Shown here: positions 792 to 18,372 of the stretch, piece after piece
Layout: every line of letters starts with the position of its first letter
Position numbering within the stretch: the first letter of the stretch is position 1
Origin: Pseudomonadota bacterium
Lineage (GTDB): Bacteria > Desulfobacterota > Syntrophorhabdia > Syntrophorhabdales > Syntrophorhabdaceae
Length of the DNA: 57,341 bases
NCBI GenBank assembly: GCA_026388255.1
Contig: JAPLKC010000010.1
Span: forward strand, 1 to 57,341
Reading direction: 5' to 3'
Made by a program: the position numbers and the translations under genes
Notes under the pieces: model-generated
What the model saw: the letters and a program-made list of their open reading frames with translations, nothing else
Databases searched by the model: none
Told to the model about the DNA's origin: nothing

Positions 792-2540
792 TTATTCACA
801 GTATGGGATTATGCTTATCACGTCTGATGGACATGTTGACGCACATAATCCGCAGCCTGTGCAGATGTCTTCATTTATATGTGCCATAGGTATGTCAGAG
901 GATGTTTGCGGTCCGAATATTGATATAGTCTTTTTTTGTATATTAATTTCTATTGCATTTTGTGGACATGCAGATTTACAGGAGCCGCAGCCACTGCAAC
1001 GTTCTTCATTTACTTCAGGCAATACGCGTTCTTCTTCCACATCGAGGAGCATCTCCCCGAGGGCTCCAAGTATCTCACGTGACTCCCACCTTTCTGCGCG
1101 AGGGTGTCTGATAAAACCTACATGATATCGCTTTCTTCCCCACTTGGTAGGCGACCACCTGAGCTGAGGCTCAGATCTGTATAGGGAGAGGAATTCCCGG
1201 TTTTTAAACAGGTCTTTGTAGTCGTCAAAACGTATAATCTTGTCGGCGTCTATGGTCAGTTCTCTCTTGAGGCCAGTAATGGCGGCCCTGCCCTCTTCAA
1301 AGGAAACTGCCTCCCCTTCTTCAAGATGAATGAATATAATGCCTTCACGCCTTGCCTTTTCATAAATCAACTCACCATACGAAGGCATAACCATGTTTTT
1401 CGTCAGCACATAGACTTTTTTTCCATCTTTTCTGAGATCCCGCGCCATATCTAAAAATTTAGCGGAAACATACTCATAGAACATTGCTGAGCCTGCATCT
1501 TCCGTTCCAAGGTAAAAGAGGCATGTTGAAAACTCATTATCAATATCGGCAAAAACAGGTTCGGATTCTTTATATATCTTTTCTTGATTCCTTACGATTT
1601 CCGACGGGAAATCCTCACCCCTGAGTGTAAGTATGCCTGCGCCGAATCCCGTAAGAATAGCATCTTTAATATTCATAGGCTCAAGGGCGCCTCCGGATAC
1701 ATAGACCCCTTCCACATCCGTTGTTAATGGTGTCTCTTCCTTTACAAATCCATACTCGTTGAGGGAAAAGCCGAATAATTTACCCAAGGTCACAAGCTGT
1801 GGATTTGGACGTAGACCAATCCCGAGGACCACGTAATTAAAACGCTCCTCTTTGAGATCATCTCCGGTGAAATACCGGATCGTAACACCCTCTTCATCCT
1901 CTTCGAAGTATCTTGAATTTGCTCTTATGAATGTAACACCTGCGTCCCTGTATGCCTTTTCCATATAAAATTCCTGGCCGAAAAACCGGAGGTCATTGTA
2001 AAAGACCTTGATCTCGGGTTTTGTCCTCTGGAGGGTCCATTTAATCTCGCGTATGGTGTAAGAACAACATACCGATGAACAAAGGGGGTACTCCTTTGAA
2101 CGGGAGCCCACGCAGAGTACAAAGCCGATCTTGTTAAAATCATCGGGAAGCTCCCCGTTGCGCTGGTCTATAAGGGCGTCGTATTCAAGGCTTGTAAGCA
2201 CCCTCTTCCCTTTATATTCAACCGGATCATAGGGGATGAGACCTGCGGTTATAATTATCTTATCTGCTTTTATTACTCTATCATTATAGGTTGTTACAAC
2301 ATATATTTCATCTAATTTATCAACAGTCTTAATGTTAGTACCTGTTATTACATCAATATTATTGTTATCTCTGATCTCATCAAAAAATGTCTTAAACCCT
2401 ACCCGGCAGTTCGCGATGCGCGCCATGAGGCCACCCGGCTCAGGAGCACATTCGAGTATGGTAACATGATGACCTTCTTTTAAAATAACCTTTGCCGCTG
2501 ATATGCCGCTTATACCGCCGCCTACTATCAATACATTCAT
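792..2540 (-). CDS. HdrA-like FAD iron-sulfur oxidoreductase (third HdrA paralogue of the cluster)
   Basis: A 582-residue cytoplasmic flavoprotein of the heterodisulfide reductase A family. The FAD-binding GGGISG is at residues 7-12. The HdrA signature CVGSR is at 143-147 followed by CSSVCC at 154-159. A C-terminal 2x[4Fe-4S] ferredoxin has CSGCGSCKSAC at 515-525 and CTGCGLCASTC at 560-570. In Hdr complexes HdrA carries the FAD that splits or merges electron pairs. The start overlaps the hdrB-like stop by four bases, so the two are translationally coupled. About 100 residues before the ferredoxin (roughly 330-440) do not resemble core HdrA and may hold a separate domain. It is the last gene of the block. 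Its acceptor cannot be read from sequence. Confidence 0.88.
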   Translation of the reverse strand: MNVLIVGGGISGISAAKVILKEGHHVTILECAPEPGGLMARIANCRVGFKTFFDEIRDNNNIDVITGTNIKTVDKLDEIYVVTTYNDRVIKADKIIITAGLIPYDPVEYKGKRVLTSLEYDALIDQRNGELPDDFNKIGFVLCVGSRSKEYPLCSSVCCSYTIREIKWTLQRTKPEIKVFYNDLRFFGQEFYMEKAYRDAGVTFIRANSRYFEEDEEGVTIRYFTGDDLKEERFNYVVLGIGLRPNPQLVTLGKLFGFSLNEYGFVKEETPLTTDVEGVYVSGGALEPMNIKDAILTGFGAGILTLRGEDFPSEIVRNQEKIYKESEPVFADIDNEFSTCLFYLGTEDAGSAMFYEYVSAKFLDMARDLRKDGKKVYVLTKNMVMPSYGELIYEKARREGIIFIHLEEGEAVSFEEGRAAITGLKRELTIDADKIIRFDDYKDLFKNREFLSLYRSEPQLRWSPTKWGRKRYHVGFIRHPRAERWESREILGALGEMLLDVEEERVLPEVNEERCSGCGSCKSACPQNAIEINIQKKTISIFGPQTSSDIPMAHINEDICTGCGLCASTCPSDVISIIPYCE

Positions 2541-3220
2541 AACGCGTTATTATCTCCCGTCAAATAGAGTAGAAGGTCTGTGAGATAGATGATTTTCCTT
2601 TTTGTTGAAAAGGTTTTAAGGGCCATATGACATAGGGGGCAGAATACCACCATGACCCCTCTGGATTTTTCCAGGATCAACGTAGAAAGCTTCTCTGTGG
2701 CCCATTTGTTGGCAAAGAACTGGTTGCCTCCGCAGCACCGGTCTTTAATCTTCTCACCTTCGATCTCTCCGCCAAAAAATGTTATCAGATCTTCCATAAC
2801 GGTTTTGTTCCTTATGGCCGTCTCTTCCGGACGCAAAAGCACGCATCCGTAATAAGGCGTAAAAACCTTTCCCTTCAGGTCCCGCATGGCATTCAGCGAT
2901 ACCAGCGCTTCCTTGTCGAGAAGTTCTAAGGGGTTCAATATTTCAAAATTGGCATCTGAATTAGCTTCTTTCAAGTTTTTGTAACAGGCAGGGCACGGCG
3001 CTACGATCTCCCTGCACATGCCTTCAGCTTTTTTCAGGTTTTCCCTGGATAGCCCGATAAGCTCATTACGGTCGCCGTATTCCAGGGCGCCACAGCAATT
3101 CCAATCAGGAATCTCATTAAGACTGTGACCGAGCTTTCTAAATATAGCCCGTACTCCCTTATCGAGCTTACGGGCGGAACCGGTCAGGGAACATCCGGGA
3201 TAATATCCGTAATTCATCAC
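2537..3220 (-). CDS. hdrB: HdrB-like heterodisulfide reductase subunit B
   Basis: A 227-residue protein with two CCG domains, the hallmark of HdrB. The first has C10, C42-C43, C76 and C79; the second has C126, C162-C163, C194 and C197. In methanogen HdrB these ligate two noncubane [4Fe-4S] clusters that cleave a disulfide. In bacteria without coenzyme M the substrate is unknown and may be another disulfide or a protein partner. Both cysteine sets are complete, so the gene looks functional. It overlaps its neighbours by four bases on each side (HdrC before, HdrA-like after), consistent with one HdrCBA unit. No membrane segment is present. Confidence 0.9.
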   Translation of the reverse strand: MMNYGYYPGCSLTGSARKLDKGVRAIFRKLGHSLNEIPDWNCCGALEYGDRNELIGLSRENLKKAEGMCREIVAPCPACYKNLKEANSDANFEILNPLELLDKEALVSLNAMRDLKGKVFTPYYGCVLLRPEETAIRNKTVMEDLITFFGGEIEGEKIKDRCCGGNQFFANKWATEKLSTLILEKSRGVMVVFCPLCHMALKTFSTKRKIIYLTDLLLYLTGDNNAL

Positions 3221-3750
3221 ATCCTGCCTTTATTGCCGTTCAAATCGTTTGAGCCGTTCAACCCATGCGAATTGTTTAAGCTGTTTGATCGATTTAAGCG
3301 TTTTACCTTATGGGGCAAATGGATACTCATGTATTCTGTCCATTTTGCCATATGTTTAACATACCCCTCTTTGAGTAAAAAGGGTATTGCCATCAAAAAC
3401 ACGTAGGGCTCGTATACCCTGCCCCATATGTTGATGGACCCTTTGAATGCCTTTTCAAAGGGCGAGGCCACAGAAAGGCTTTCCCGCAAGGCCCGAACCA
3501 CATCCGGTATTTTTATCCGCCACGGACACGCACTGGTACAGCGGTAACAGTTGGTGCAATAACGTACCAGTAGATGATCCCTGTCCACCTCTTGCTCAAG
3601 GAACAAACTGACGAGGAGGTCCTGGGGGTTTATGTTCATCTCAAGGTCATTGACCGTACAGACTGAAGCGCAAATCTTGCATCCGAGACAGACCGAGAAA
3701 TCCTCTTTTTTATAGCCAGCTAACTCTATAATGTAATCAGTCTTCTGCAT
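3217..3750 (-). CDS. hdrC: HdrC-like ferredoxin subunit with a repeat-derived C-terminal tail
   Basis: A 177-residue protein with two ferredoxin motifs in the HdrC pattern: C21, C24, C27, C31 and C65, C68, C71, C75, followed by a proline as usual. HdrC wires electrons between HdrA and HdrB. The last 30 or so residues are an Asn/Leu/Gly/Ser-rich run made by a period-9 DNA repeat at 3239-3301 and have no counterpart in the family. The stop overlaps the hdrB start by four bases, so the tail stays in frame and coupling survives. The start overlaps the end of the FdhB-like gene by 14 bases. The core function is sure; the tail probably adds nothing. Confidence 0.88.
   Translation of the reverse strand: MQKTDYIIELAGYKKEDFSVCLGCKICASVCTVNDLEMNINPQDLLVSLFLEQEVDRDHLLVRYCTNCYRCTSACPWRIKIPDVVRALRESLSVASPFEKAFKGSINIWGRVYEPYVFLMAIPFLLKEGYVKHMAKWTEYMSIHLPHKVKRLNRSNSLNNSHGLNGSNDLNGNKGRM
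3239..3301. repeat. Degenerate period-9 tandem repeat inside the 3' end of hdrC
   Basis: Seven consecutive 9-mers can be lined up: TTCAAATCG, TTTGAGCCG, TTCAACCCA, TGCGAATTG, TTTAAGCTG, TTTGATCGA, TTTAAGCGT. Most begin with TT and share a TTYAA or TTTGA core. Because 9 is a multiple of three, the array stays in frame with hdrC and is open on the other strand too. The units differ from each other, so it is an old or inexact array and not a fresh slippage product. Confidence 0.75.
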
Positions 3751-4747
3751 CTTTTAACTCGTCCTCAAGAAATGTAAGGTAAGGTATCTCCTCGTCGAAA
3801 CTCTTCCCTGACATGTATGCGAACATGCCCTGTAGTCTTTCCGATATACCCTTGAAATATTTTGTTAAAGGGATGCCCTGAGGACAGGCCTCTTCACAGG
3901 CACCGCAGCCTACACAAGTCTGTGATACATGGAACATCCGTATTAAATGAAAAAGTTCCTTCCCCTGGGGCATGGCAGCAGAACCTGTCCGTAGAATCTT
4001 GTTCAGGAATGCATCGCCTTTTGGCAGATATTCGTCGCCGTTGAAGACACAATCGATGCAGTAGCAGACAGGACACATATCCCTGCAGTTTTTACACATA
4101 ATGCATTTTAAAAAGTCTTTTGAAAACTCTTCCATATCGGTTCGGAACTTCTCTGTTTTTACGGTTGCGTTTATGGACATTTCAGCAGGGGCATCTCCAG
4201 CTTCGCCCTCTATAAGCGAAAGAAAGGTCTCACCCTTCTCAGTATAGGGGGATGCCCACATAAAACCGTTTTTGTCCAGCCTGATGCCTGCGTCTCCCAC
4301 AACCCCTCTTCGTTCACTGCAAACCCTGCAAGCCCATCGCATTTTTTCAGGTTCCTTGAAATAATCCTTTATTTGTGCTACCTCTGTTGGTATATCGTCC
4401 GTCTTTTCTTTTGAAGATACAGCCCCGAAACAATCGACAGAAACGGCAATGATATCCTCACATTCAATCTGTGTCAGCTTGACCAGTTCAATATAAGCTC
4501 TGATTTCGCAAGGTCGAAGAATGAGCATGATCTTTGTACCCTTGGCGAATAAACGGCGCAGGTATAAAGCCCCGTTTATGCCGAATGATGTATTTATAAG
4601 CGAAAAATGATCGAGGTTGCCTTTAAATATCCGATGGCCGATGTCGTCCGCTCCCTTTTCAAAACCCAGGACCAGATGCTTTTCGACCTCCAGAAACCTG
4701 TTGAGGGCATTTTCGATTTTGCCGTTATTAATTTGTTTTCCCTGCAT
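3737..4747 (-). CDS. FrhB/FdhB-family iron-sulfur protein with two C-terminal ferredoxin clusters
   Basis: A 336-residue protein. The N-terminal half resembles the FrhB/FdhB flavin-binding family, with LRPCEIRA around residue 80 and VSVDCFG around 102-108. A Cys pair at 140 and 143 follows. A ferredoxin region has CIMCKNCRDMC at 215-225, extra cysteines at 228-233, and CVGCGACEEAC at 278-288. Members of this family pass electrons between F420, NAD(P)H, formate dehydrogenase or hydrogenase and Fe-S partners. Its place between MvhD and HdrC suggests it links the Hdr complex to an electron donor or acceptor encoded elsewhere; no catalytic formate dehydrogenase or hydrogenase subunit lies in this window. 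It overlaps mvhD by 20 bases. The exact substrate is open. Confidence 0.75.
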   Translation of the reverse strand: MQGKQINNGKIENALNRFLEVEKHLVLGFEKGADDIGHRIFKGNLDHFSLINTSFGINGALYLRRLFAKGTKIMLILRPCEIRAYIELVKLTQIECEDIIAVSVDCFGAVSSKEKTDDIPTEVAQIKDYFKEPEKMRWACRVCSERRGVVGDAGIRLDKNGFMWASPYTEKGETFLSLIEGEAGDAPAEMSINATVKTEKFRTDMEEFSKDFLKCIMCKNCRDMCPVCYCIDCVFNGDEYLPKGDAFLNKILRTGSAAMPQGKELFHLIRMFHVSQTCVGCGACEEACPQGIPLTKYFKGISERLQGMFAYMSGKSFDEEIPYLTFLEDELKDAED

Positions 4748-5147
4748 TTTTCTTTTCCTTTATTTCGTTATACATACCTGTAACTTTTTCCACGAAACGT
4801 CGCGCCTCGGCTGCGCTTACCCAGAACAGGCGTAGCTTGTCTTTCATCGAAAATGCGTCAAACATCTCTTTCAAGGCAGCTATTTTTCTCCGTGTAAAGT
4901 AATTGCCTTTTATAAAATGACAGTCACCCGGATGGCATCCGGCAACAAAAGCACCATCAGCACCTTCAAGGATAGATTTAATGACAAAGGCTGGATCCAC
5001 CCTGCTTGAACAGGGAACCTGAACCAGCCTCACCCCATCGGGGTATTTCATCCTTAAACTTCCGGCCATCTCGGATGCCTTGAACGTGCAGAAAGAACAG
5101 GCGAAACCTATGATTTCCTGGTTCTTATCGGTTTTGTCTTCAGACAT
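4728..5147 (-). CDS. mvhD: MvhD/HdrD-type [2Fe-2S] electron-transfer subunit
   Basis: A 139-residue match to the methyl-viologen-reducing hydrogenase delta subunit. Conserved cysteines are C17 and C20 in GFACSFC, C46 in VPCSSRVD, and C71 and C76 in GCHPGDCHF. MvhD docks on HdrA and carries electrons through one [2Fe-2S] cluster from hydrogenase or formate dehydrogenase into the complex. A strong Shine-Dalgarno (GGGAGG) precedes the ATG. The gene follows a HdrA gene, the usual arrangement, though separated from it by about 120 bp of repeat-like DNA. The family assignment is sure; the partner is inferred. Confidence 0.92.
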   Translation of the reverse strand: MSEDKTDKNQEIIGFACSFCTFKASEMAGSLRMKYPDGVRLVQVPCSSRVDPAFVIKSILEGADGAFVAGCHPGDCHFIKGNYFTRRKIAALKEMFDAFSMKDKLRLFWVSAAEARRFVEKVTGMYNEIKEKKNAGKTN

Positions 5148-5268: not shown

Positions 5269-6942
5269 TTACACTGCTTCCACCAAAGCGCTTATCTCGT
5301 CATCTATTACGTTGTCAAGGTACCCCCTCAATCCTATGGCCGATGAAGGACATGTTGCATTACAGAGCCCACAGCCCATGCATGCAGCCTCCTCCACGTG
5401 CACAAGCCTCTTTGTTTCATCAAACTTTATTGCCTTTGCAACACATGCCTTTTCACACATCCTGCAACCGCTGCATCTTTTCATATCAACAAAAGCAATA
5501 AAGGGCTCCACAAAGGCATAGCCAAGATTCAGAAAACCGTAGAGCTTTGTTGCCGATGCCCTGCCATGGTTGATCGATTCTTCAATATCCTTGGGCCCGG
5601 AACATGCCCCTGCAATAAAAATCCCTTTTACTGCCGTATCATAGGGTCTGAGTTTCACATGGGCCTCAAGGAAAAATTTGTCCTTATCAAGCGTGATCTT
5701 AAGTAGCGACGAGATCAACCGGTTGTCTTCAGGAGGCGACATACCGATGGAGAGCACCACAAGGTCAAACTCCCTCTCAAAGAGCTCATTAAATAGCGTA
5801 TCCTCTCCCCTGACAAGTACACCCTTGGAACCTGGGATGATTTCAGCGATATTGCTTCTTGTGAACAAGACACCCTTTTCCTGCGTATCCTCAAAGAATT
5901 CTTCTCCGCCTCGCGGATGGGCCCTCACGTCCATATAAAATGACTCAACGTATGAATCCTTATATTTCTCTTTTACTGTGTCAGCGACGCGAAGCGCATT
6001 GATGCAACATACCCTTGAACAGTATGGTTTCCCTATCTGCTCATCCCTTGACCCCACACAGTGGAGTATGGCTATTCGCGGGTTCTCGGGAAGGGACAGG
6101 GCATCGATGCTTCTTTCAAAATCCATAGTGGTAATGATCCTTTTATCTATACCGTATGCCAATTCAGGCTTTATTTGGGGGTCAAAAGGTGAAAACCCTA
6201 TGGCCACGATAACTCCGCCGGCGACTATCCTTTTTTCACCTGCCCGGGTTAAGAGCACTGCCTCGTAGTTCCCGAAGGAGCCTTCAAATGAGCTGATAGT
6301 CGTTGATGTAAAGATCTCCACATTCTCTCTGCCTTGAAGTTCCTTCTCCATTTCCTCAATAATTAACGTACCGTCTTCTCCAATGGGCCATATGTTTTTA
6401 AGATTCCTGGTGTGGCCGCCAAGTTCCGCCTCTTTTTCCACCAGATAGACCTGCATACCCATCTTTGAGAGAAAAACGGCTGCGCTTAAGCCTGAGACGC
6501 CTCCGCCAATGATAAGTGCCGACTTGGTCACATCTACCCGTTTTTCTTCAAGGGGAACATAGTGTGACGATGAATAAAGCCCGGCCTTTATAAGTCTTAT
6601 TGCTTTTTCCGTATTCTTATCAACATCATCTCCAACCCAGGAACAATGCTCTCTGATGCCCACCCTCCTTAAGAGAAAAGGATTCAAATCGGACTTTTTC
6701 AAGAGGTCTTTAAAGAGTTCCTGATGGAGCGAAGGGGTGCATGAAGCAATAATAACACGGTCAAGGCCGTGTTTTTCGATGCTGTCCTTAATCATGTCCT
6801 GACCCGGCTCGGAGCATACAAAAGGGTAATCCTCTGATACAGTTACACTGGGGAACATCTTGAAATATGTACTCAGCTTTTTCACATCAACAGTATGTTT
6901 AATATTATGCCCGCAATGGCAGATAAATATACCGGTCTTCAT
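5269..6942 (-). CDS. hdrA: HdrA-family FAD iron-sulfur protein (partner of MvhD)
   Basis: A 557-residue protein with the full HdrA architecture. The N-terminal domain starts with FICHCGHNI and has a CTPSLHQELF segment near 68. FAD-binding GGGVSG is at 146-151, CVGSR followed by CSRVCC lies mid-protein, and a C-terminal 2x[4Fe-4S] ferredoxin has CSGCRMCEKAC and CMGCGLCNATC. In methanogen-type complexes this subunit performs flavin-based electron bifurcation and binds MvhD, whose gene follows. Unlike canonical HdrA, no CSTC-type cysteine pair follows the FAD motif; that feature occurs instead in the 903-aa paralogue upstream. The ribosome-binding site is weak (AGAGA), so translation may depend on the upstream gene. 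Confidence 0.9.
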   Translation of the reverse strand: MKTGIFICHCGHNIKHTVDVKKLSTYFKMFPSVTVSEDYPFVCSEPGQDMIKDSIEKHGLDRVIIASCTPSLHQELFKDLLKKSDLNPFLLRRVGIREHCSWVGDDVDKNTEKAIRLIKAGLYSSSHYVPLEEKRVDVTKSALIIGGGVSGLSAAVFLSKMGMQVYLVEKEAELGGHTRNLKNIWPIGEDGTLIIEEMEKELQGRENVEIFTSTTISSFEGSFGNYEAVLLTRAGEKRIVAGGVIVAIGFSPFDPQIKPELAYGIDKRIITTMDFERSIDALSLPENPRIAILHCVGSRDEQIGKPYCSRVCCINALRVADTVKEKYKDSYVESFYMDVRAHPRGGEEFFEDTQEKGVLFTRSNIAEIIPGSKGVLVRGEDTLFNELFEREFDLVVLSIGMSPPEDNRLISSLLKITLDKDKFFLEAHVKLRPYDTAVKGIFIAGACSGPKDIEESINHGRASATKLYGFLNLGYAFVEPFIAFVDMKRCSGCRMCEKACVAKAIKFDETKRLVHVEEAACMGCGLCNATCPSSAIGLRGYLDNVIDDEISALVEAV

Positions 6943-6960
6943 GTCAAAAGTCTCTGAATT

Positions 6961-6984: not shown

Positions 6985-7012
6985 AAATCTTTTTCTTTAT
7001 TTTTTTCACTAT

Positions 7013-9759: not shown

Positions 9760-10695
9760 TTATCCTTTCACTATATCTTTCAACTTATCCCGGAGCTTGT
9801 TTGCATCGCCGATTACGCCATAATGGGCATACTGGAATATGGGCGCTTCCGGATCTTTATTAACTGCTATAATACAGTCAGAATCTTTCATACCGGCTAT
9901 ATGCTGGAATGCCCCGCTTATGCCCATGGCGAGATATACTTTGGGTTTAACTGTTTTGCCGGAAGTACCGACCTGTTGTGCCTTGGGAAGCCACATTTTA
10001 TCAATAACAGGTCGCGAGCCGGACAAAGTTGCCCTCAGCAGTCCGGCAAGCTCCTGATAATCGTCTATCTCGTCCTTATTCCCAATCCCTCTTCCCACGG
10101 AAAGGAGGAACTCGGCTTTGGTGATATCTATCTCTCCCTTTTCTTCCTCAACATACTCGATGAAGGATCTCCCTTCTGCAAGGGTAATGTCCTCAAGCGC
10201 GACGGTTTCAGCAGGACCTTTTTCAACAGCATGTTCTTTAAAGCTGCCGCTTCGCACGGTGACAACACAGGGGCCGCTTCCTGCCTGCCGGAATTCACCG
10301 AATATTTTATCCGAATAGTAGCTTTTGTAGAAAACGTTCGTTTCTTTATCAAAGCCGCTTACATCCGTAATAAGAGGCATATCGAAATGCCCCGCCACAT
10401 AGGACGCAAGCTCAGCGCCTGACGATGAGTGTGTGAAGACGATCACATCCGGTTTCCCACGAGAAGTCATCACTTTTTCTAAAATTGTAATGAAATTCAG
10501 TGGGTTGAGAAATATCTCCTCTTGCACGGTTGCCTTGATAGCAATATTTACAAGATTTCCCTTCATTTCATAGGCGCCATCGGGCATGAGAAGAACGATG
10601 CTCTTTTGCAGGAGGGCTGCAATACCTATGGAATCCAGGTTTCTTTCTTCAAAGACCCCACGTCTTACTTCAGCTACAACCAGTGTATAGCTCAT
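9760..10695 (-). CDS. etfA: Electron transfer flavoprotein alpha subunit
   Basis: A 311-residue EtfA of usual length. The C-terminal FAD-binding region is well kept: GSRPVIDKMW, then QVGTSGKTVKPKVYLAMGIS, GAFQHIAGM and INKDPEAPIFQYAHYG-like residues. EtfAB takes electrons from acyl-CoA dehydrogenases, and the partner dehydrogenase is probably the one at 17230-18372. The start overlaps the etfB stop by four bases. The HdrD-like protein encoded just before etfB and the NAD(P)H-linked HdrA just after are the likely onward carriers. Whether this ETF bifurcates cannot be decided by eye; it needs comparison with bifurcating EtfA flavin sites. Confidence 0.94.
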   Translation of the reverse strand: MSYTLVVAEVRRGVFEERNLDSIGIAALLQKSIVLLMPDGAYEMKGNLVNIAIKATVQEEIFLNPLNFITILEKVMTSRGKPDVIVFTHSSSGAELASYVAGHFDMPLITDVSGFDKETNVFYKSYYSDKIFGEFRQAGSGPCVVTVRSGSFKEHAVEKGPAETVALEDITLAEGRSFIEYVEEEKGEIDITKAEFLLSVGRGIGNKDEIDDYQELAGLLRATLSGSRPVIDKMWLPKAQQVGTSGKTVKPKVYLAMGISGAFQHIAGMKDSDCIIAVNKDPEAPIFQYAHYGVIGDANKLRDKLKDIVKG

Positions 10696-11471
10696 TGGTA
10701 TACCCCCTTTTCCTTAAGAATTCCGATAAGGTCTTTACATATACCATCCATCTCGCCAGTAAGCATAGTTGCCCCACCCTTCCTGGCCGGGTAAACCCAT
10801 TTTACAACCTCTATGCCGGGGTTCAGGTTATCTTCATACTCCTTTCCTTTAAAGAACTTGCGTTCTACCTTGGATGCCTTCCTTACACCCATAATGGAAA
10901 CATATCGGGGCTCGTTAATCCCTGTCTGAATTGATATAACACAAGGGAGCATAACCTTCACTCTCTCCTGGAGACCACCTTCGAGTTCTCTTCTTGCTAT
11001 AACGTGGTCACTTTCAAAGGCGTCGATACCGATAACCATAGATACGAAGGGAAGCCCCAGTTTGGCCGCGAGAATACCACCCATTGCACCGAACTGATCG
11101 TCCTCGGACTGTACACCCGTAAAGATCGCATCAAAAGGAACATTTTCTTTCTTCAGGAAATTCTGTATCACGGTTGCTCTTGCGCCGGGGTCGTGAAGTA
11201 TCTGATCAATCTCAATGAGAAAACCGTCTTTTGCCCCCATAGCAATGGCCCTTCGCAAGACCTCGTCGGATTCTGCATCGCCGATGGAGATTGCTGTCAC
11301 AGTTCCACTGGTTTTCTCAACAATCCTTACCGCCTCTTCAACTGCGTAATTATCCCAATCATTCACCTTGAAAGGAACCTTTGAAAGGTCGACTGCCCTA
11401 CCCTCGTCAACAATCCGCAGTTCTTCTTCCTGTGTTGCCGGTACTCTCTTTGTAAAAACCAATAGATTCAT
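10692..11471 (-). CDS. etfB: Electron transfer flavoprotein beta subunit
   Basis: A 259-residue EtfB. It opens with NLLVFTKRVPATQEEELRI and contains KVNDWDNYAVEEAVRI, the conserved GAKDGFLI segment, the adenine-nucleotide-binding FTGVQSEDDQFGAMGG region, and a C-terminal VSIMGVRKASK, all typical. It forms a heterodimer with the following EtfA. Translation starts one base after the HdrD-like stop, and GGAGG lies inside the end of that gene, so the three are tightly coupled. The tight association argues that this ETF delivers to the soluble HdrD-like protein and not to a membrane ETF:quinone oxidoreductase. None of the latter is encoded in the window. Confidence 0.94.
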   Translation of the reverse strand: MNLLVFTKRVPATQEEELRIVDEGRAVDLSKVPFKVNDWDNYAVEEAVRIVEKTSGTVTAISIGDAESDEVLRRAIAMGAKDGFLIEIDQILHDPGARATVIQNFLKKENVPFDAIFTGVQSEDDQFGAMGGILAAKLGLPFVSMVIGIDAFESDHVIARRELEGGLQERVKVMLPCVISIQTGINEPRYVSIMGVRKASKVERKFFKGKEYEDNLNPGIEVVKWVYPARKGGATMLTGEMDGICKDLIGILKEKGVYQ

Positions 11472-11472
11472 T

Positions 11473-12567
11473 TTATAAAACCTCCATCAATATCTCGGAT
11501 ATCTCTTTCACTGCCAACCCTTTTTCAGTTGCCGGGTCTTCAAGTGTCATTACACAGAAGGGACAGCTTGTTGCCATTACTTCTGCCCCTTTTTCTATTG
11601 CTTCCAAAACTCTTATTTCGCTATTCCGTTGACAGGTTGTCTCTGCCTCGTAAAACATCCTTCCGCCCCCGCCTTCACAACAGAGGGATGTTTCCCTGGA
11701 CCTTGAAAACTCAAGTAGTTCCAGACCTTCTATACTTTTGAGTATATCCCTTGGTTCATCGAAGATGCCATTTTGTTTTCCGAGAAAACAAGGGTCATGG
11801 TAAATCACTTTCTTGTTATAAGGTATTTTGGGGGCAAGTCGCCCCTCTTTTACCATACTTGCCAGTACCTCCGTGTAATGGGATACCTTGATGCCCAGAT
11901 TGCCGTATTCCTTCTTCAGCGTGTTCATACAATGATGGGAAAGGGTTATAATCTCCTTAACCCCGTATTCTTTAAAAGCGGCAATATTCTCTTCCTGAAG
12001 CTCCTCGAAAAGACCTGACTCGCCTATTCGCCGTATCTCGTTGCCGCAGCATGCTTCCTCTTCCCCAAGAACACCGAATTCCAGACCTCCTTTATTGAGC
12101 ATCTTTGCTACATTTACCGGTATAACCATGCACCTGGGATCATATGCCTGAATACAACATGTGAAAAGAAGCCTCTTTGACACGGTTTCACTTACATGAG
12201 GGACCTCGATATCAAGTTTTTCGAACCAGGATCCCCTTTTAGCCCGGGAACGACCCCACGGGTTCCTCTGAACAAAGGTATTCTCAAGGGCTTTTTGAAT
12301 GGTTGCCGGTATGTCCCCTTCTTCAACCATGACAGACCTTACATCAATAATCATTTCTGATGGTTTTACATCTCTGGGACACCTGATGGTACATGCGCCG
12401 CATGATGTACAGTACCAGGGGATCGACTCTTCTATATGATGCTGGAACTGCTTTTTTCTCACAAGCATACGTATGTTGAAGGGGGTTCTTCCTGCCTCAG
12501 GGCAGCTCCCCGTACATTTTCCGCATTGGATGCATGTTAAAACCCTTGTTTGAGTCTGGCTGATCAT
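11473..12567 (-). CDS. Soluble HdrD-like iron-sulfur protein (HdrC-HdrB fusion) linked to ETF
   Basis: 364 residues with the HdrD plan. The N-terminal ferredoxin pair is CIQCGKCTGSC (12-22) and CTSCGACTIRC (53-63). Two CCG domains follow: CCIQAY, EEEACCGNE and HHC in the first; DPCFLGK, SLCCEGGGG and SCPFC in the second. Such proteins accept or donate electrons at noncubane clusters and are common beside ETF in syntrophs. Many of those have N-terminal membrane helices; this one has none, so it should be cytoplasmic. Placement directly before etfBA suggests ETF-to-Hdr electron flow. Glycolate-oxidase GlcF has a similar fold, but no FAD-type GlcD neighbour is present. Confidence 0.85.
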   Translation of the reverse strand: MISQTQTRVLTCIQCGKCTGSCPEAGRTPFNIRMLVRKKQFQHHIEESIPWYCTSCGACTIRCPRDVKPSEMIIDVRSVMVEEGDIPATIQKALENTFVQRNPWGRSRAKRGSWFEKLDIEVPHVSETVSKRLLFTCCIQAYDPRCMVIPVNVAKMLNKGGLEFGVLGEEEACCGNEIRRIGESGLFEELQEENIAAFKEYGVKEIITLSHHCMNTLKKEYGNLGIKVSHYTEVLASMVKEGRLAPKIPYNKKVIYHDPCFLGKQNGIFDEPRDILKSIEGLELLEFSRSRETSLCCEGGGGRMFYEAETTCQRNSEIRVLEAIEKGAEVMATSCPFCVMTLEDPATEKGLAVKEISEILMEVL

Positions 12568-12591
12568 ATTTTCATACCTCTGCGTTTCAAA

Positions 12592-14139
12592 TCAAATCTT
12601 CTTTAAAGACTCCCTTATAGCTTTTTTCAAAATTTTCCCCTGCGGGCTCTTGGGCAACTCTTTCCAGAATTCAACAGATTTCGGTTTTTTGTATCCGGCC
12701 AGATGCTCTCCGCAAAATTTGATAATATCCTCTTTTGTTGCAACGACCTCCTGTCTCAGGACAACAACAGCCTTCGGCACTTCACCCCAGTGTTCATCGG
12801 GGACGCCGATCACCGATACCTCAAGCACAGCCGGGTGTTTATAGAGTATTTCCTCGATCTCTCTCGGATATATATTGACCCCGCCGCTTATTATCATGTC
12901 ATTTTTTCTTTCCACTAAATAGACGTATCCATCCTCATCAAGTTTGCCGAGATCGCCTGTATGAAGCCAGCCGTTTTTCAGCTTTTTTTCCGTCTCCTCC
13001 GGCATCTGCCAGTATCCCTTCATAACTGCCTCGCTTCTGCCGATTATCTCCCCTACCTCGCCGACAGCCACGTCTTTATCATCCTCGTCTACGATTCTGA
13101 TCTCGTAATTAAGCGCAGGCTTGCCGGAAGAAGCAAGCCTCTTGATCTTTTTCTCATTGCCGTCAAGGATATGATCTTCAGGCTTTAATACTGTTGTAAA
13201 GGGTCCGCTTTCAGTCTGCCCGTACAACTGGGCAAAACCGCATGGAAAAACCTCAAGAGCTTTCTTGAGAAGCTCTACATGCATAGGCGCACCGGCGTAT
13301 AGGATGAGCCGTAAATTGCTCAAATCATATTTTTTTACATCCGGTACCTGGAGAAGGCTATGAATCATGGTAGGCACCATCTGGCACCTCGTAATCCGTT
13401 CTTTTGAAATATATTCCAGAACCTGTTCAGGATTGAATCCCCCTTCCCGCCGGATGTAGAATGTGTTTGGCATATAAGAATGCCTGACAATATTGTCTTC
13501 GCAGGCCACGTGATACATGGGAAAGGTGATCAACACACGCTCGTCATACTCAACCCGTAGCTCTATTACGCTTGCTACAGCATCAGACATGAGGTGTCTA
13601 TGCGTTCTCATCGCACCCTTTGCCTTACCTGTTGTGCCTGCAGTAAAGATGATGCTGAGCACATCTTCTTCAGATATTTTAATGTTGGGCTCAGAACTAT
13701 ACCCAATGGTAAGAATGTTTTTGTAATCCTCCATATAAGGGAACGTCGGGGTTTGGAGGCATATATAATGATCCATAGGATTTACATCCGGCCTGAGCGT
13801 ATCTATCATCTCACCGTAGTCCTCATCCAAAAAAAGGAATTTAGGAGCCGAATAATTCAATATATCAAAAAGCTCGCCTTTTGTGAGATGGTTGTTGTAA
13901 GGGCAAAAGATACCTCCTGTTTTTGCTGCTGCAAAATATATTTCCATAAATTGATGGCAGTTATGAACAAGTACCCCTATGCGGTCACCTTTATTTAGCC
14001 CCTTATCTAATAGAGCGTTTGCCAGGCAATTGACTCTTTCGTTCAAAGTTTTAAAGTCCGTTGTTGCCTCTTCCGAGACAATGGCAGTTTTTGCAGGAAA
14101 TTTATTTGCATTTCTTACAAGCATATCACCGATGACCAT
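12592..14139 (-). CDS. AMP-forming acyl-CoA ligase
   Basis: A 515-residue member of the ANL superfamily. Motifs: FTAGTTGKAKGA near 165-176 (P-loop), LYGQTESGP (A5), GWLHTGDLGKLDEDGYVYLV with ERKNDMIISGGVNIYPREIE (A7-A8 hinge), and a C-terminal SPQGKILKK carrying the catalytic lysine. It forms an acyl-adenylate and then a CoA thioester, activating a carboxylic acid. The substrate is not readable. The TRAP transporter encoded just before it and the acyl-CoA dehydrogenase of the same block suggest a carboxylate imported from outside, aromatic or alicyclic given the nearby hydroxybenzoyl-CoA reductase. A strong AGAGGAGG site precedes the ATG. Confidence 0.9.
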   Translation of the reverse strand: MVIGDMLVRNANKFPAKTAIVSEEATTDFKTLNERVNCLANALLDKGLNKGDRIGVLVHNCHQFMEIYFAAAKTGGIFCPYNNHLTKGELFDILNYSAPKFLFLDEDYGEMIDTLRPDVNPMDHYICLQTPTFPYMEDYKNILTIGYSSEPNIKISEEDVLSIIFTAGTTGKAKGAMRTHRHLMSDAVASVIELRVEYDERVLITFPMYHVACEDNIVRHSYMPNTFYIRREGGFNPEQVLEYISKERITRCQMVPTMIHSLLQVPDVKKYDLSNLRLILYAGAPMHVELLKKALEVFPCGFAQLYGQTESGPFTTVLKPEDHILDGNEKKIKRLASSGKPALNYEIRIVDEDDKDVAVGEVGEIIGRSEAVMKGYWQMPEETEKKLKNGWLHTGDLGKLDEDGYVYLVERKNDMIISGGVNIYPREIEEILYKHPAVLEVSVIGVPDEHWGEVPKAVVVLRQEVVATKEDIIKFCGEHLAGYKKPKSVEFWKELPKSPQGKILKKAIRESLKKI

Positions 14140-14186
14140 TATGATTTACCTCCTCTTGTTGTATGTATAAATGTGGCATGTCTATC

Positions 14187-15488
14187 TTATTTCATAAGTA
14201 AATTAGGCAGCCAGGTCACCAGTTCCGGAAAAACGAACAGCAATGCCACACAAAGGACCATAGAAATGAGAAAAGGATAAACACCTTTGTAAATAATGCC
14301 CATTGGTACTTTGGTTATATTCTTAACAATAAAAACACAGATGGCCACAGGCGGAATCACTGAACCAATACATACTGTAAGAGCAATCATAATGCCGGCC
14401 CATAAAGGGTCATAACCAAGTTTTAATACAATAGGAAAAAAGATCGGTGTTGCAAGGATCATAAATGCAAGGTCATCTATAAAGGAACCGCCTATAAGAT
14501 ATACTAAGAAAATGATAATCATTATCCAGACACGGTGTATCGGCAGTGCGGTAATCGTGTCGGCTGCTACCTGGGGAATTTGGGTAATGGCGATAAAATG
14601 GCCCAGTATCGCTGATGAAGCAATAAGCATAAGAACCATACATGCGGTGCGCAAAGATTCCTCAATAGATTTGATAAAGCCTTTGAAATTAATATCCCTT
14701 TTTAGAACACACAGAACAAGCACAGCGAATGCTCCGATGCTGCCTGCTTCCGTGGGCGTGAAAATCCCGTACATAAGGCCGCCTATCAATATGAGAAATA
14801 TGACAATAGGCCATATTACATTGGGAACGGTCTTCCATCTTGCCGGCCAGTCATATTTTTCGCTTTTTGGTCCAATAGACGGATTGATTCCGCACCATCC
14901 GCAAATTACTACCATAAAAAGGAAAGATAAAATAAGCCCCGGTATTACGCCGGCCATGAAAAGCTTGCCTATAGACTGTTGTGTTACGATACCGAAGACT
15001 ATCAGGGTCACGCTTGGAGGGAGCAGGATGCCGAGCGTCCCCACTGAAGCAACTATTCCGGTCGAAAGTTTTTTGCTGTAACCATATCTGTCCATCTCCG
15101 GAACGGCAACGCTTGCAAATGTTGCGGCTGTGGCAGCCACGGAACCGCATATTGCCTTGAACACGGTTGCGCCTGCCACTGTTGCTACGGCAAGCCCCCC
15201 CGGGATATGTCCTATAAATTTATGTGTAGTATCGAATAAACGTCTTGCAATGCCTGCATTAAAGGCAATCTGGCCCATAAGCACAAAAAGGGGTATGGCA
15301 GTGAGGCTGTAAGACGCGAGAGCATCAAAATAATCATTTGCCAGGAGGCTTATGGCAGTTTCAAAGTCGTTAAGCATGGCAAACCCTATGAAACCAACAA
15401 TAGCCATACCAAAAGCAAGTTCAATGCCTGTTAGAAATACACATAAAAGTAAAAATAGCGCTATCATGCCGAACGTAATCTCATTCAT
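14187..15488 (-). CDS. dctM: TRAP transporter large permease (DctM family)
   Basis: A highly hydrophobic protein of 433 residues with about twelve membrane segments and DctM features: GLAVATVAGATVFKAICGS near the start, SVGTLGILLPPS mid-protein and a late GSVIPPVAICVF. I chose the ATG at 15488 over an upstream in-frame ATG because GGAGGTGA sits eight bases before it and because the first eleven codons of the longer form lie in dctQ. The start overlaps the dctQ stop by eight bases. DctM forms the ion-coupled transport channel for the acid delivered by DctP. The acyl-CoA ligase gene follows within 50 bp. Confidence 0.92.
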   Translation of the reverse strand: MNEITFGMIALFLLLCVFLTGIELAFGMAIVGFIGFAMLNDFETAISLLANDYFDALASYSLTAIPLFVLMGQIAFNAGIARRLFDTTHKFIGHIPGGLAVATVAGATVFKAICGSVAATAATFASVAVPEMDRYGYSKKLSTGIVASVGTLGILLPPSVTLIVFGIVTQQSIGKLFMAGVIPGLILSFLFMVVICGWCGINPSIGPKSEKYDWPARWKTVPNVIWPIVIFLILIGGLMYGIFTPTEAGSIGAFAVLVLCVLKRDINFKGFIKSIEESLRTACMVLMLIASSAILGHFIAITQIPQVAADTITALPIHRVWIMIIIFLVYLIGGSFIDDLAFMILATPIFFPIVLKLGYDPLWAGIMIALTVCIGSVIPPVAICVFIVKNITKVPMGIIYKGVYPFLISMVLCVALLFVFPELVTWLPNLLMK

Positions 15489-15969
15489 GTTTATCACCTC
15501 CAAAAATCGCCTTAAGGACATCGGACAGGAGTACCAGGGACTCTATAAGGCCGCAAAGTGATAACAAGTATGCTACAGGATAATAGGGGACGTGTAAGGT
15601 AAGCGAAACCTCATGCGTTTTATACAAATCGTTCCCCTTTAAAAAAAACGACCATGTAAGGAGTATAAAGAACACGAAGCCTAATAGTTTTGTAAAAATT
15701 ATGAATATCCTTTTCCAGAAATCGGAGAGATACTCCGTAAGTATATCAACATTTACGTGCGCACCCTCCAATGATGACTGAGGAAGAGACATACCTATAA
15801 TCAGGGCTCCGGCAAAGGCTACCAACTCAAATGTTCCCGTAATAGGTTTCCCAAGGTAACGCATAATAACATCAACTACCGTAAAAAACATCATCAGGGC
15901 AAGTATTATCCCTCCGACGGAATTTGTGACTTTGCTGATCTTTAAGGTGGCGCTGAGAAATTTTTGCAT
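15481..15969 (-). CDS. dctQ: TRAP transporter small permease (DctQ family)
   Basis: A 162-residue protein with four predicted membrane helices and the DctQ signature VDVIMRYLGKPITGTFELV in helix 1-2, followed by MSLPQSSLEGAHVNVDIL. It partners the DctM channel. AAGGAAGG lies upstream of the ATG. It is preceded by a GC-rich hairpin at 16009-16037 that separates it from dctP, and is coupled to dctM by overlap. The length and helix count are normal for the family. Confidence 0.92.
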   Translation of the reverse strand: MQKFLSATLKISKVTNSVGGIILALMMFFTVVDVIMRYLGKPITGTFELVAFAGALIIGMSLPQSSLEGAHVNVDILTEYLSDFWKRIFIIFTKLLGFVFFILLTWSFFLKGNDLYKTHEVSLTLHVPYYPVAYLLSLCGLIESLVLLSDVLKAIFGGDKHE

Positions 15970-16008
15970 TCTTTTACCTTCCTTTTTATGGTATTCGGGC
16001 TTATATAC

Positions 16009-16037
16009 CCGGGGAGTGTTGTACCTGAACTCCCCGG
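16009..16037 (-). terminator. Hairpin between dctP and dctQ (partial terminator or mRNA-stability loop)
   Basis: CCGGGGAGT at 16009-16017 pairs with ACTCCCCGG at 16029-16037 around an 11-base loop. No T-run follows on the - strand. The likely role is to raise the amount of binding protein relative to the permeases by stopping part of the transcription or by protecting the dctP mRNA end. Confidence 0.55.
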
Positions 16038-16054
16038 GGTGAATTTTTAGAGTA

Positions 16055-17083
16055 TTAGTGGTACTTCTTGATAGAATCTAAAAGAAATTTCACCGCCTCA
16101 TCACCAGGCAAGCCCTTTTCCTTCGCATCCTTTATATATGCATCAACAAGGGGTTTGGAGCCTTTTTCATACCAACGGGCTTGTTCTTCTTTGCTTAGAG
16201 AAATAATTTTGACGCCTCTCTTTACCAGCCAGTCCTTGCCGTCTTTTGTAATGTCTGCCCACAACTTGCCGTACTTGTCTATGTATTCAACACTCATTTT
16301 ATCCACTATTGCCTGGACATCAGGAGGAAGTGAGGCAAATTTTTTCTTGTTCATCATTACAATAAATACTGCTGAATATGCGCTGGTTACGTTCTCTGTA
16401 GAGTATTTTACATGTTCCCCTGTCCTGAAATTATGCAGTGCCTCATAACTTGACATCAACCCGTCAACAACGCCTTTTGCAAGGGCATCATACACATCAG
16501 GCATAGGCATTGCTACAGGAGCTGCGCCTATCAAGCCGACAAACTTTGCATTTGACCCGAAGCACCGTAGCTTCAACCCCTTTGCATCTTCAAGCTTTTC
16601 AACAGGTCTTGTTTTTGTATGGAGAAAACCGCCTGGCTGTCCATGGAATAGCAATACCTTCACATCATCGAACTCTTTTGGATTAAATTTCTTATAAAAG
16701 TCGTTTGCAATCTTGGTTGCTTCAGGTCCCTGCGGCCACCCGATAGGAAGATCGAGTACCTGTGAAAATGGAAATCTGCCCATTGTGTATCCGAGAACAT
16801 GGTTGCCCACATCGGCAATTCCCTTCACAACGGCATCGTATGACTGTGCAGCAGGAACAAGCGTGCCTGCAGCATAGTAATTGACTTTGACTTTGCCGCC
16901 CGCCCGTTTTTCAAGATCTTTACCCCATTCCTGCAAAATGAGATCGTGCTTGCTTCCCACAGGGAACCAGTTAGCAATTTTTATTGTTATTACCTTTTCC
17001 TGTGCAAAGCTGACCGTTGCAGCCATACATGTAACTACGAAAAAAACAAATACCAACAAATGAATAATGCGAATCCGTTTCAT
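16055..17083 (-). CDS. dctP: TRAP transporter substrate-binding protein (DctP family)
   Basis: A 342-residue periplasmic binding protein. The signal peptide is MKRIRIIHLLVFVFFVV followed by a small-residue region and a likely cut after SFA. The mature part begins with ITIKIANWFPVGSKHD, typical of the family, and includes KLRCFGSNAKFVGLIGAAPV around the carboxylate-binding arginine. I prefer the ATG at 17083 over one 39 bases upstream: GAAGGGGG is well spaced before it and the signal peptide then starts properly. A sigma-54 promoter (17122-17137) and a 41-bp dyad lie upstream, so expression is likely induced through the NtrC-type regulator nearby. The ligand is probably an organic acid. Confidence 0.92.
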   Translation of the reverse strand: MKRIRIIHLLVFVFFVVTCMAATVSFAQEKVITIKIANWFPVGSKHDLILQEWGKDLEKRAGGKVKVNYYAAGTLVPAAQSYDAVVKGIADVGNHVLGYTMGRFPFSQVLDLPIGWPQGPEATKIANDFYKKFNPKEFDDVKVLLFHGQPGGFLHTKTRPVEKLEDAKGLKLRCFGSNAKFVGLIGAAPVAMPMPDVYDALAKGVVDGLMSSYEALHNFRTGEHVKYSTENVTSAYSAVFIVMMNKKKFASLPPDVQAIVDKMSVEYIDKYGKLWADITKDGKDWLVKRGVKIISLSKEEQARWYEKGSKPLVDAYIKDAKEKGLPGDEAVKFLLDSIKKYH

Positions 17084-17121
17084 AATACCCCCTTCTAAGA
17101 TTTTATTTACTATCTGAACCA

Positions 17122-17137
17122 AGCAATTTTAATGCCA
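17122..17137 (-). promoter_or_regulatory. Sigma-54 promoter of the dctP operon
   Basis: On the - strand the sequence is TGGCATTAAAATTGCT, which fits TGGCAC-N5-TTGCW with the required GG-N10-GC spacing (GG at 17136-17135, GC at 17124-17123). Start of transcription would fall near 17111, giving a leader of about 28 bases before the dctP ATG. An NtrC-family activator with GAFTGA is encoded about 1.4 kb away. Confidence 0.75.
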
Positions 17138-17186
17138 CATTGAAAAACAAGTTAATTCACAACACATAGACTGAACCTTTTTCTAT

Positions 17187-17227
17187 ATTGTACCAATAAG
17201 ATACAGCCTGTATCATATTGGTACAAT
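17187..17227. promoter_or_regulatory. 41-bp near-perfect dyad, probable enhancer site for the NtrC-type activator
   Basis: Left arm 17187-17206 and right arm 17208-17227 match at 19 of 20 positions around a single central base. The outer half-site is ATTGTACCAAT. The centre lies about 70 bp upstream of the -24 element of the dctP sigma-54 promoter, near -95 from the predicted start, the normal place for an activator dimer site. It also begins three bases after the acyl-CoA dehydrogenase stop codon, so it may double as a terminator, though no T-run follows. Confidence 0.6.
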
Positions 17228-17229
17228 GC

Positions 17230-18372
17230 TTACCGTCCTAACAGTCTCCTGCCGATAATCAATTTCTCAACTTCTTTTGTTCCTTCAAAAATCTCAAGGA
17301 CTTTTGCGTCGCGCCAGTAATGACCGACATCATATTCTTCCAGTATACCATATCCTCCGTGGAGTTGTATCGCTTCATCGGAAACTTTTACTGCTATCTC
17401 TGCGGCGTACCATTTCGTCATGGCAATAAGCGCATGGTCTAATTCACCTTTATCCAATTTTGCGCTGGTACAATAAAGGAAGCTTCTTCCGGCTTCGACT
17501 AAAGTGGCCATCTCGGCTATTTTTGACTGTACTATCGGTGAGTCGGCAAGGGGGGCCCCAAACTGTTTTCTTTTACGCACATGACTTATCGCTTTCTCTA
17601 ATGCTCCCTGAGCTGTTCCTATCCCGAATCCTGCTGCTTCCAAGCGGGAACGATTGAGAAATTCCATAATATTATAGAATCCCCTACCCTCCTTACCAAG
17701 TAGATTTTCCTTAGGAACTGTTACATCTTTGAAAGTAACCTCTCCTGTATCAGAGCAGCGTAGTGAAAGTTTATTTTTCAGTTTACTTGACTCGTAACCC
17801 GGCCTGTTAGTTTCTACAATAATAGTGCTGAAACGATCGTATTTTTTTTTCGCTTCAGGAGTAGTAATACAAAGAACGATAAGAAAATCTCCTCGATTAG
17901 CATTTGTTATGAATGTTTTGTTACCGGATATCACATATCCGCTGTCAGTTTTTCTTGCCATGGTTTTAACAGAAGACACGTCGCTTCCCGCATCTGGTTC
18001 CGTTATGGCAACACCCATCTTGGCTTCGCCTTTGCATACTAAAGGGAGATATTTTAGCTTTTGTTCTTCGCTTCCAATGAGGCTTATGAGTTGTGAACCG
18101 AAAAATGACGATGTTATCGAATGTGCAATGCCGCAGTCAATACGGGAAAACTCTTCACATATGAGGCTGTGATCTAAATACCCAAGGCCTGCTCCGCCGT
18201 ATTTTTCATCTATAAAGACCCCAAGAAACCCTAAATCTGCAGCCTTTTTCCAGAGTTTTTCGTCGAACTCCTCCTTTTCATCCAGCTCCCGCGCCACTTC
18301 CATCAGTTCTCCTTCGGCGAACTCTCTTGCAGCTTTTCTTACGTCTTTCTGCTCTGGTGTCAGTTCGAACAT
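17230..18372 (-). CDS. Acyl-CoA dehydrogenase
   Basis: A 380-residue flavoprotein of normal length with all three ACAD domains. Seen are MGVAITEPDAGSDVSSVKT (FAD/substrate contacts), GFGIGTAQGALEKAISHVRKR with KQFG, QLHGGYGILEEYDV and the C-terminal IFEGTKEV, whose Glu363 is the expected catalytic base. It should oxidise an acyl-CoA to the enoyl-CoA and pass electrons to EtfAB encoded in the same block. Chain or ring specificity cannot be read; butyryl-, glutaryl- or alicyclic-CoA substrates are possible. A sigma-54 promoter lies 45-60 bases upstream. A 41-bp dyad begins directly after the stop. Confidence 0.93.
   Translation of the reverse strand: MFELTPEQKDVRKAAREFAEGELMEVARELDEKEEFDEKLWKKAADLGFLGVFIDEKYGGAGLGYLDHSLICEEFSRIDCGIAHSITSSFFGSQLISLIGSEEQKLKYLPLVCKGEAKMGVAITEPDAGSDVSSVKTMARKTDSGYVISGNKTFITNANRGDFLIVLCITTPEAKKKYDRFSTIIVETNRPGYESSKLKNKLSLRCSDTGEVTFKDVTVPKENLLGKEGRGFYNIMEFLNRSRLEAAGFGIGTAQGALEKAISHVRKRKQFGAPLADSPIVQSKIAEMATLVEAGRSFLYCTSAKLDKGELDHALIAMTKWYAAEIAVKVSDEAIQLHGGYGILEEYDVGHYWRDAKVLEIFEGTKEVEKLIIGRRLLGR

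What the first reader, a model, noticed from the sequence alone, without database searches (positions are those of the whole stretch)
792..18372. One-direction gene block combining TRAP uptake, acyl-CoA ligase, ACAD, ETF, HdrD-like, HdrL-like fusion, HdrA, MvhD, FdhB-like and HdrCBA
All genes lie on one strand, many overlap, and the order runs from substrate uptake to electron disposal. The set predicts that electrons of one acyl-CoA oxidation go through ETF and a soluble HdrD-like protein into a cytoplasmic Hdr complex with three different HdrA-type flavoproteins and links to NAD(P)H and FdhB-type partners. No membrane ETF dehydrogenase is present. ETF, Hdr and MvhD families are known; the joint presence of three HdrA proteins in one catabolic cluster looks unusual. 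Substrate and direction of flow are inference.
Basis: partly seen in the sequence, partly recalled or inferred. Interest (0 to 1): 0.75.

Follow-up and report, generated by a model that had tools for sequence, protein, structure and literature searches.

The report
Soluble ETF-linked Hdr electron-transfer operon
A group of fermenting bacteria carries a fixed ten-gene set that probably passes the electrons of acyl-CoA (fatty- or aromatic-acid) oxidation into a water-soluble electron-balancing machine instead of the membrane, which would help explain how these bacteria manage an energetically very difficult step.

Summary
In detail: fifteen same-strand genes run acd-dctPQM-acs-hdrD-etfB-etfA-hdrL-hdrA-mvhD-fdhB-hdrC-hdrB-hdrA at 18372-792, bracketed by two hairpin terminators, with a sigma54-like promoter behind an NtrC/kinase pair. 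The unit that matters is smaller. The ten genes from hdrD to the last hdrA keep the same order wherever the contig allows in all 39 genomes examined from three families of the order (Syntrophorhabdaceae and sisters); the upstream uptake/activation/ACAD genes are swapped. 'Three HdrA' reduces to an HdrL+HdrA pair, fused as one ~1,475-aa protein elsewhere in the phylum, plus an HdrCBA set; D. autotrophicum locus VIII is a published precedent for that half. What appears new is its linkage to a non-bifurcating-type ETF and a soluble HdrD resembling the cytoplasmic core of EtfD, His-Cys cluster motif included. The NAD(P)H (GltD-like) module of HdrL is inserted between two ferredoxin-domain cysteine motifs and is absent in 8 of 37 loci (at least four changes on the tree). 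Best explanation: a soluble ETF-driven Hdr confurcation complex. Function and direction are inferred. The genome also encodes a membrane ETF dehydrogenase elsewhere.

The parts
17230..18372 (-). acyl-CoA dehydrogenase (acd), substrate unknown; variable part
   Evidence: Pfam Acyl-CoA_dh domains; PDB relatives are short/medium-chain ACADs
16055..17122 (-). TRAP binding protein DctP (real start probably about 17083); variable part
   Evidence: Pfam DctP
15481..15969 (-). TRAP small permease DctQ; variable part
   Evidence: Pfam DctQ
14187..15521 (-). TRAP large permease DctM; variable part
   Evidence: Pfam DctM
12592..14139 (-). AMP-dependent acyl-CoA ligase; variable part
   Evidence: Pfam AMP-binding; NCBIfam fatty acyl-CoA ligase subfamily
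11473..12567 (-). HdrD-like soluble iron-sulfur protein, core gene 1; two 4Fe-4S plus two CCG domains, EtfD-like His212-Cys213, LGKQ/CCEGGGG signature
10692..11471 (-). EtfB, core gene 2; no bifurcating GDTAQVG motif
   Evidence: Pfam ETF; alignment to 1o94/5ol2/6fah
9760..10695 (-). EtfA, core gene 3
   Evidence: Pfam ETF_alpha
7013..9724 (-). HdrL: HdrA with GltD/NfnB-like NAD(P)H module inserted inside its ferredoxin domain, core gene 4
5269..6942 (-). HdrA with N-terminal domain and two C-terminal 4Fe-4S motifs, core gene 5
   Evidence: PDB 5odc_A E 3e-126
4728..5147 (-). MvhD/FlpD, core gene 6
   Evidence: Pfam FlpD E 9e-40
3737..4747 (-). FdhB-like (F420-type formate dehydrogenase beta) without an FdhA, core gene 7
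   Evidence: PDB 9t1s_M, 7bkb_E, 8rvu_E; fold match
3217..3750 (-). HdrC-like, two 4Fe-4S, core gene 8
2537..3220 (-). HdrB-like, 227 aa, both CCG cysteine sets complete and invariant, core gene 9
   Evidence: Pfam CCG
792..2540 (-). third HdrA-like flavoprotein, lacks the N-terminal domain, core gene 10
18417..18432 (-). sigma54-like promoter TGGCCTGATTATTGCA before acd
17122..17137 (-). sigma54-like promoter TGGCATTAAAATTGCT before dctP
18441..18468 (-). hairpin terminator between ntrC and acd
   Evidence: 12-bp stem, z -3.9
540..575 (-). hairpin terminator after the last gene
   Evidence: fold z -4.0 followed by T run
18504..21354 (-). sigma54-dependent response regulator and histidine kinase, often next to the core in relatives
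   Evidence: Pfam; synteny

Best explanation
The ten genes hdrD to hdrA3 encode a soluble, Hdr-based electron-transfer complex for which ETF is the electron port. Proposed path: acyl-CoA dehydrogenase -> non-bifurcating ETF -> soluble HdrD (like the cytoplasmic core of an EtfD/EMO protein without its membrane part) -> HdrA-type FAD with MvhD. There the high-potential ETF electrons are confurcated with low-potential electrons from reduced ferredoxin, to make a carrier of intermediate potential: NAD(P)H through the GltD-like module of HdrL, or formate through the FdhB-like subunit. HdrCB is a further thiol/disulfide or electron-transfer port. Where the GltD module is missing, HdrL is a plain HdrA with an intact ferredoxin-type insert, so this arm can be exchanged. 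Shown here: gene content, fixed order across the order, cluster-ligand motifs, module insertion and absence, homologies. Inferred: complex formation, flow direction, coupling, substrate.
For: Fixed 10-gene order in 32 of 40 loci with 7 more consistent up to the contig or region end, across three families with protein identities down to about 45-65%. HdrD's best solved relative is EtfD (9ojn_A, E 3e-56), which links ETF to menaquinone (PMC13083937); the EtfD cluster-D2 histidine aligns with His212, and the position is His in all soluble HdrD-like proteins compared. A sequence signature (LGKQ + CCEGGGG) of this HdrD goes with ETF neighbours outside the order: 8 of 12 loci against 3 of 40, Fisher p 8e-5, though several loci share a family. 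EtfB lacks the GDTAQVG motif seen in the bifurcating 5ol2 and 6fah and matches Methylophilus ETF 1o94 best. HdrL and HdrA2 are colinear halves of one ~1,475-aa protein elsewhere. FdhB-like matches FdhB of Hdr complexes 7bkb, 8rvu, 9t1s. The GltD module sits between the two cysteine motifs of HdrA's inserted ferredoxin domain and is absent in 8 of 37 loci, at least 4 changes on the tree. Energetics (general knowledge): acyl-CoA near -10 mV and ferredoxin near -500 mV average about -255 mV, near NAD(P)H, formate or H2 under syntrophic conditions.
Against: No biochemistry, expression or structure of the complex. Confurcation and direction rest on analogy with HdrABC complexes. The genome has a membrane route next to another ETF, so this one need not carry the main flux. 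L042-L044 hold a 70-72% identical HdrD with no ETF found nearby. HdrB keeps both catalytic-type CCG motifs, so a disulfide substrate could be the true acceptor.
Confidence: 0.5

Rival explanations
1. ETF electrons go through HdrD and HdrA to HdrCB and reduce a thiol/disulfide carrier such as DsrC, with energy recovered as ferredoxin or NAD(P)H: a variant of the Flx-Hdr/DsrC scheme with ETF as a further partner.
For: HdrB keeps all ten CCG cysteines in 17 homologues; a DsrC gene exists in the genome; DsrC with Flx-Hdr is reported for S. aromaticivorans UI (PMC6687939).
Against: DsrC is not in the block; a canonical Flx-Hdr set already exists on contig C59; HdrD has the non-catalytic His-Cys motif.
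Confidence: 0.2
2. The machine runs the other way: NAD(P)H or formate is bifurcated by the Hdr complex to reduce ferredoxin and, through HdrD and ETF, an enoyl-CoA (reductive use, as in caffeyl- or acryloyl-CoA reduction).
For: The ACAD's best NCBIfam model is acryloyl-CoA reductase (below its cut-off); Hdr and ETF reactions are in principle reversible.
Against: Relatives are known or inferred syntrophic oxidisers (PMC5946492, PMC7382037); TRAP uptake plus CoA ligase suggests oxidation of imported acids; ETF is not of the bifurcating reductase type.
Confidence: 0.15
3. The core is several independent Hdr enzymes that merely share an operon (ETF-HdrD with one partner; HdrL-HdrA-MvhD-FdhB and HdrCBA as a separate NAD(P)H/formate enzyme).
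For: hdrL-mvhD-fdhB-hdrA occurs without ETF in other families (L103-L105) and ETF-HdrD with a single hdrA in others (L110, L111, L113, L133).
Against: Order never broken in 39 genomes of the order; HdrL+HdrA fusion elsewhere.
Confidence: 0.15

Closest known systems
HdrL/HdrA locus VIII of Desulfobacterium autotrophicum HRM2 (PMC2702500)
   Same: Tandem hdrL-hdrA with fdhB and an hdrA4-hdrB-hdrC set; HdrL is an HdrA/glutamate-synthase fusion, with mvhD next to it
   Different: No ETF in locus VIII as described; there the ETF pair sits with the membrane-type hdrF3
FlxABCD-HdrABC (Flox-Hdr) of sulfate reducers and syntrophs
   Same: HdrABC + MvhD + FlxB/C-like iron-sulfur protein, soluble, NAD(P)H-linked; a canonical copy is on contig C59
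   Different: No FlxA in the block; the NAD(P)H module is inside HdrL; ETF and HdrD added
EtfD/EMO (DUF224) membrane ETF:menaquinone oxidoreductase
   Same: HdrD is homologous to its cytoplasmic Fe-S/CCG core and shares the His-Cys motif
   Different: No membrane domain; S210 replaces EtfD Cys581 and C174 replaces Thr539; followed by HdrA/MvhD genes
Class II benzoyl-CoA reductase (Bam) electron-transfer genes
   Same: Soluble HdrD-like + HdrA + MvhD (AFOR-family enzyme, HdrD and HdrA together on contig C32; with MvhD in relatives)
   Different: Partner enzyme is ETF/ACAD, not the AFOR-family tungsten enzyme; distinct HdrD signature
HdrABC-MvhD-FdhAB of methanogens (7bkb, 8rvu, 9t1s)
   Same: FdhB-like plus MvhD plus HdrABC homologues
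   Different: No FdhA in the block, two further HdrA proteins, ETF input

Membership tests
Flx-Hdr (FlxABCD-HdrABC) | HdrA, HdrB, HdrC and MvhD/FlxD together | tested here: met
Flx-Hdr (FlxABCD-HdrABC) | FlxA NADH-binding subunit (NAD_binding_1/DHODB type) | tested here: not met
   no such domain in the block; present on contig C59
HdrL (HdrA/GltD fusion) | GltD-like module within an HdrA | tested here: met
EtfD/EMO | Fe-S plus CCG core homologous to EtfD | tested here: met
   9ojn_A E 3e-56
EtfD/EMO | transmembrane domain | tested here: not met
   364 aa covering only Fe-S and CCG domains; orthologues show no TM segments
Electron-bifurcating ETF | GDTAQVG-type motif in EtfB | tested here: not met
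   GVQSEDDQFGAMGG against GRQAIDGDTAQVG in 5ol2 and 6fah
Class II benzoyl-CoA reductase (Bam) | AFOR-family catalytic subunit beside the HdrD/HdrA genes | tested here: not met
   none in the block; present next to the HdrD paralogue on contig C32
HdrABC-Fdh complex | FdhB homologue with HdrABC and MvhD | tested here: met
HdrABC-Fdh complex | FdhA catalytic subunit in the same cluster | tested here: not met
   no molybdopterin domain among the block genes; candidates elsewhere in the genome
Flavin-based electron bifurcation/confurcation | coupled exergonic and endergonic reactions at a flavin | not testable with these tools
   needs the purified complex

The most novel reading that the evidence does not exclude
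A soluble ETF:Hdr confurcating complex that replaces the membrane route for acyl-CoA electrons across a whole order of syntrophs, with an exchangeable arm (ferredoxin or NAD(P)H) made by inserting or losing a GltD module inside HdrA's ferredoxin domain.
Probability: 0.4. Interest if true: 0.82.

Novelty: new variant of a known kind. Interest (0 to 1): 0.6.

Why it matters
How syntrophs push acyl-CoA electrons (near -10 mV) down to H2 or formate has been a long-standing problem. The known answer is a membrane ETF:menaquinone oxidoreductase plus reverse electron transport. A conserved soluble ETF-HdrD-HdrL/HdrA-MvhD-FdhB-HdrCBA operon predicts a second answer that uses ferredoxin rather than membrane potential. 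It names the proteins to purify, and the natural GltD-plus and GltD-minus versions give a built-in test of the NAD(P)H arm.

Tried and rejected
AlphaFold of the third HdrA with three sequences gave pLDDT 43 and was not used. The FdhB-like model (pLDDT 61) was used only for a fold match that agreed with the sequence match. No substrate could be assigned: ACAD and CoA-ligase models are unspecific. Nobu et al. on S. aromaticivorans UI is not held, so whether it already describes this locus could not be checked; searches for ETF-Hdr complexes found no description of this cluster. The plasmid search gave only GltD-like partial matches. A bifurcating ETF was considered and rejected on the motif. In the alignment the row L115 is a wrong ORF (its 418-aa third HdrA overwrote the 427-aa HdrA that also matched); its module state rests on the etfA-hdrA gap. 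G022's short gap comes from a contig end, and it was counted as GltD-bearing because its HdrL is full length.
Full report
Observation. ORF calls and Pfam/NCBIfam scans confirm fifteen minus-strand genes at 18372-792: acd, dctP, dctQ, dctM, acs, hdrD, etfB, etfA, hdrL (903 aa), hdrA (557 aa), mvhD, fdhB-like, hdrC, hdrB, hdrA (582 aa). Neighbouring genes overlap or lie 1-121 nt apart. A 12-bp-stem terminator lies between the upstream ntrC gene and acd (18468-18441), a second hairpin followed by a T run lies after the last gene (about 575-540), and sigma54-like promoters precede acd and dctP. In relatives, similar sites lie within 350 nt upstream of hdrD in 10 of 38 loci, against about 0.9 expected from the same-strand background.

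Host and spread. The window is contig C10 of a 3.8-Mb draft genome. Named loci with 71-86% identical HdrD are Syntrophorhabdus/Syntrophorhabdaceae and deltaproteobacterial MAGs. With 40 loci compared with the window's genes, all ten core genes hdrD-etfB-etfA-hdrL-hdrA-mvhD-fdhB-hdrC-hdrB-hdrA are in the same order in 32; seven agree until the contig or fetched region ends; only G092, of another family, differs. An orthologous HdrD (clearly above the paralogue level) was not found in a few family members (G031, G033, G036-G038). Upstream genes (acd, acs, TRAP, and ntrC/kinase in either direction) vary. So the conserved unit is an electron-transfer operon to which different catabolic genes are attached.

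The HdrA proteins. Searching 395 genomes of the phylum with HdrL gave matches at E <= 1e-200 in 146; many sit in open frames of about 1,475-1,500 aa. In those inspected, HdrL residues 11-887 are followed by a region colinear with the window's 557-aa HdrA. The window's hdrL and hdrA2 are thus the split form of one protein. In D. autotrophicum HRM2, locus VIII has tandem hdrL/hdrA, fdhB and hdrA4 with hdrB and hdrC (PMC2702500). This half is therefore not new.

The movable module. The GltD-like part of HdrL (Fer4_20 plus pyridine-nucleotide domains, about 160-620) is inserted between the cysteine motifs at 111-121 and 636-646 that belong to HdrA's inserted ferredoxin domain. In L114, L118 and L119 the same gene is a 428-432-aa HdrA without the module. 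By the etfA-hdrA distance, 8 of 37 loci lack it, and a tree of concatenated HdrD, EtfB, EtfA and HdrA needs four changes. The module is present in most loci and in the outgroup, so losses are likelier, but direction is not proven.

The ETF and HdrD. EtfB has GVQSEDDQFGAMGG where the bifurcating 5ol2 and 6fah have GRQAIDGDTAQVG; its best PDB match is the Methylophilus ETF 1o94. HdrD's best PDB match is mycobacterial EtfD, 9ojn_A (E 3e-56). In EtfD, cluster D2 is completed by His583, which makes it non-catalytic (PMC13083937). The aligned residue is His212 in the window, and His is present in all soluble HdrD-like proteins compared (glycolate/lactate-oxidase-type homologues apart), whereas the HdrB proteins keep CxxC. 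In the window HdrB all ten CCG cysteines are intact and invariant. The block's HdrD carries HDPC[FY]LGKQ and CCEGGGG; paralogues beside AFOR-family enzymes or other Hdr genes carry LGRH and CCG[GM]GG. Outside the order, 8 of 12 signature loci have an ETF within the fetched region against 3 of 40 of the others (several loci share a family, so the p-value is optimistic).

Other ports. The FdhB-like protein's strong matches are only FdhB chains of Hdr-formate dehydrogenase complexes, with the same fold. The genome also has a canonical Flx-Hdr set (C59), an AFOR-HdrD-HdrA set (C32), a membrane EMO-type protein beside another ETF (C39), a DsrC and molybdopterin oxidoreductases.

Mechanism. I propose ACAD -> ETF -> soluble HdrD -> HdrA/MvhD, where ETF electrons and ferredoxin electrons are confurcated to NAD(P)H (HdrL) or formate (FdhB), with HdrCB as a thiol or transfer port. 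Gene content, order, motifs and module absence are shown; complex formation, coupling, direction and substrate are inferred.

Novelty. Hdr complexes with different partners (hydrogenase, formate dehydrogenase, Flx, MetFV, Bam) are known; an ETF-linked soluble version with HdrL was not found in the searched papers. The S. aromaticivorans UI genome paper could not be read. I rate it a new variant of a known kind.

Noticed in passing
window 24424-28188 (-): Xanthine-dehydrogenase-type molybdenum hydroxylase set (MoCo 762 aa, 2Fe-2S 156 aa, FAD 332 aa) near aminotransferase III, saccharopine-dehydrogenase-like and glyoxalase genes.
   Followed up: partly
window 28001-50000: GC falls from about 0.45 to 0.30-0.38 over a stretch with housekeeping (yebC, ruvAB), type IV pilus (secretin, PilM) and O-antigen ligase genes.
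   Followed up: no
window 51616-55599 (-): 1327-aa ORF without a Pfam match between PilW-like and prepilin peptidase genes; possibly a large pilus-tip protein.
   Followed up: no
L083:1-7450 (contig C39): HdrA, an MvhD whose frame holds an in-frame TGA (possible selenocysteine), a membrane EMO-type protein and etfBA in a row: a possible membrane counterpart of the block.
   Followed up: partly
L043:5654-11095: A 72%-identical HdrD with the same signature stands alone beside a molybdenum hydroxylase, with no ETF nearby; its partner is unclear.
   Followed up: partly
L103, L104, L105: hdrL (about 1,131-1,171 aa)-mvhD-fdhB-hdrA (about 940-1,040 aa) sets with hdrD and hdrB/C-type genes and without ETF in other families.
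   Followed up: no
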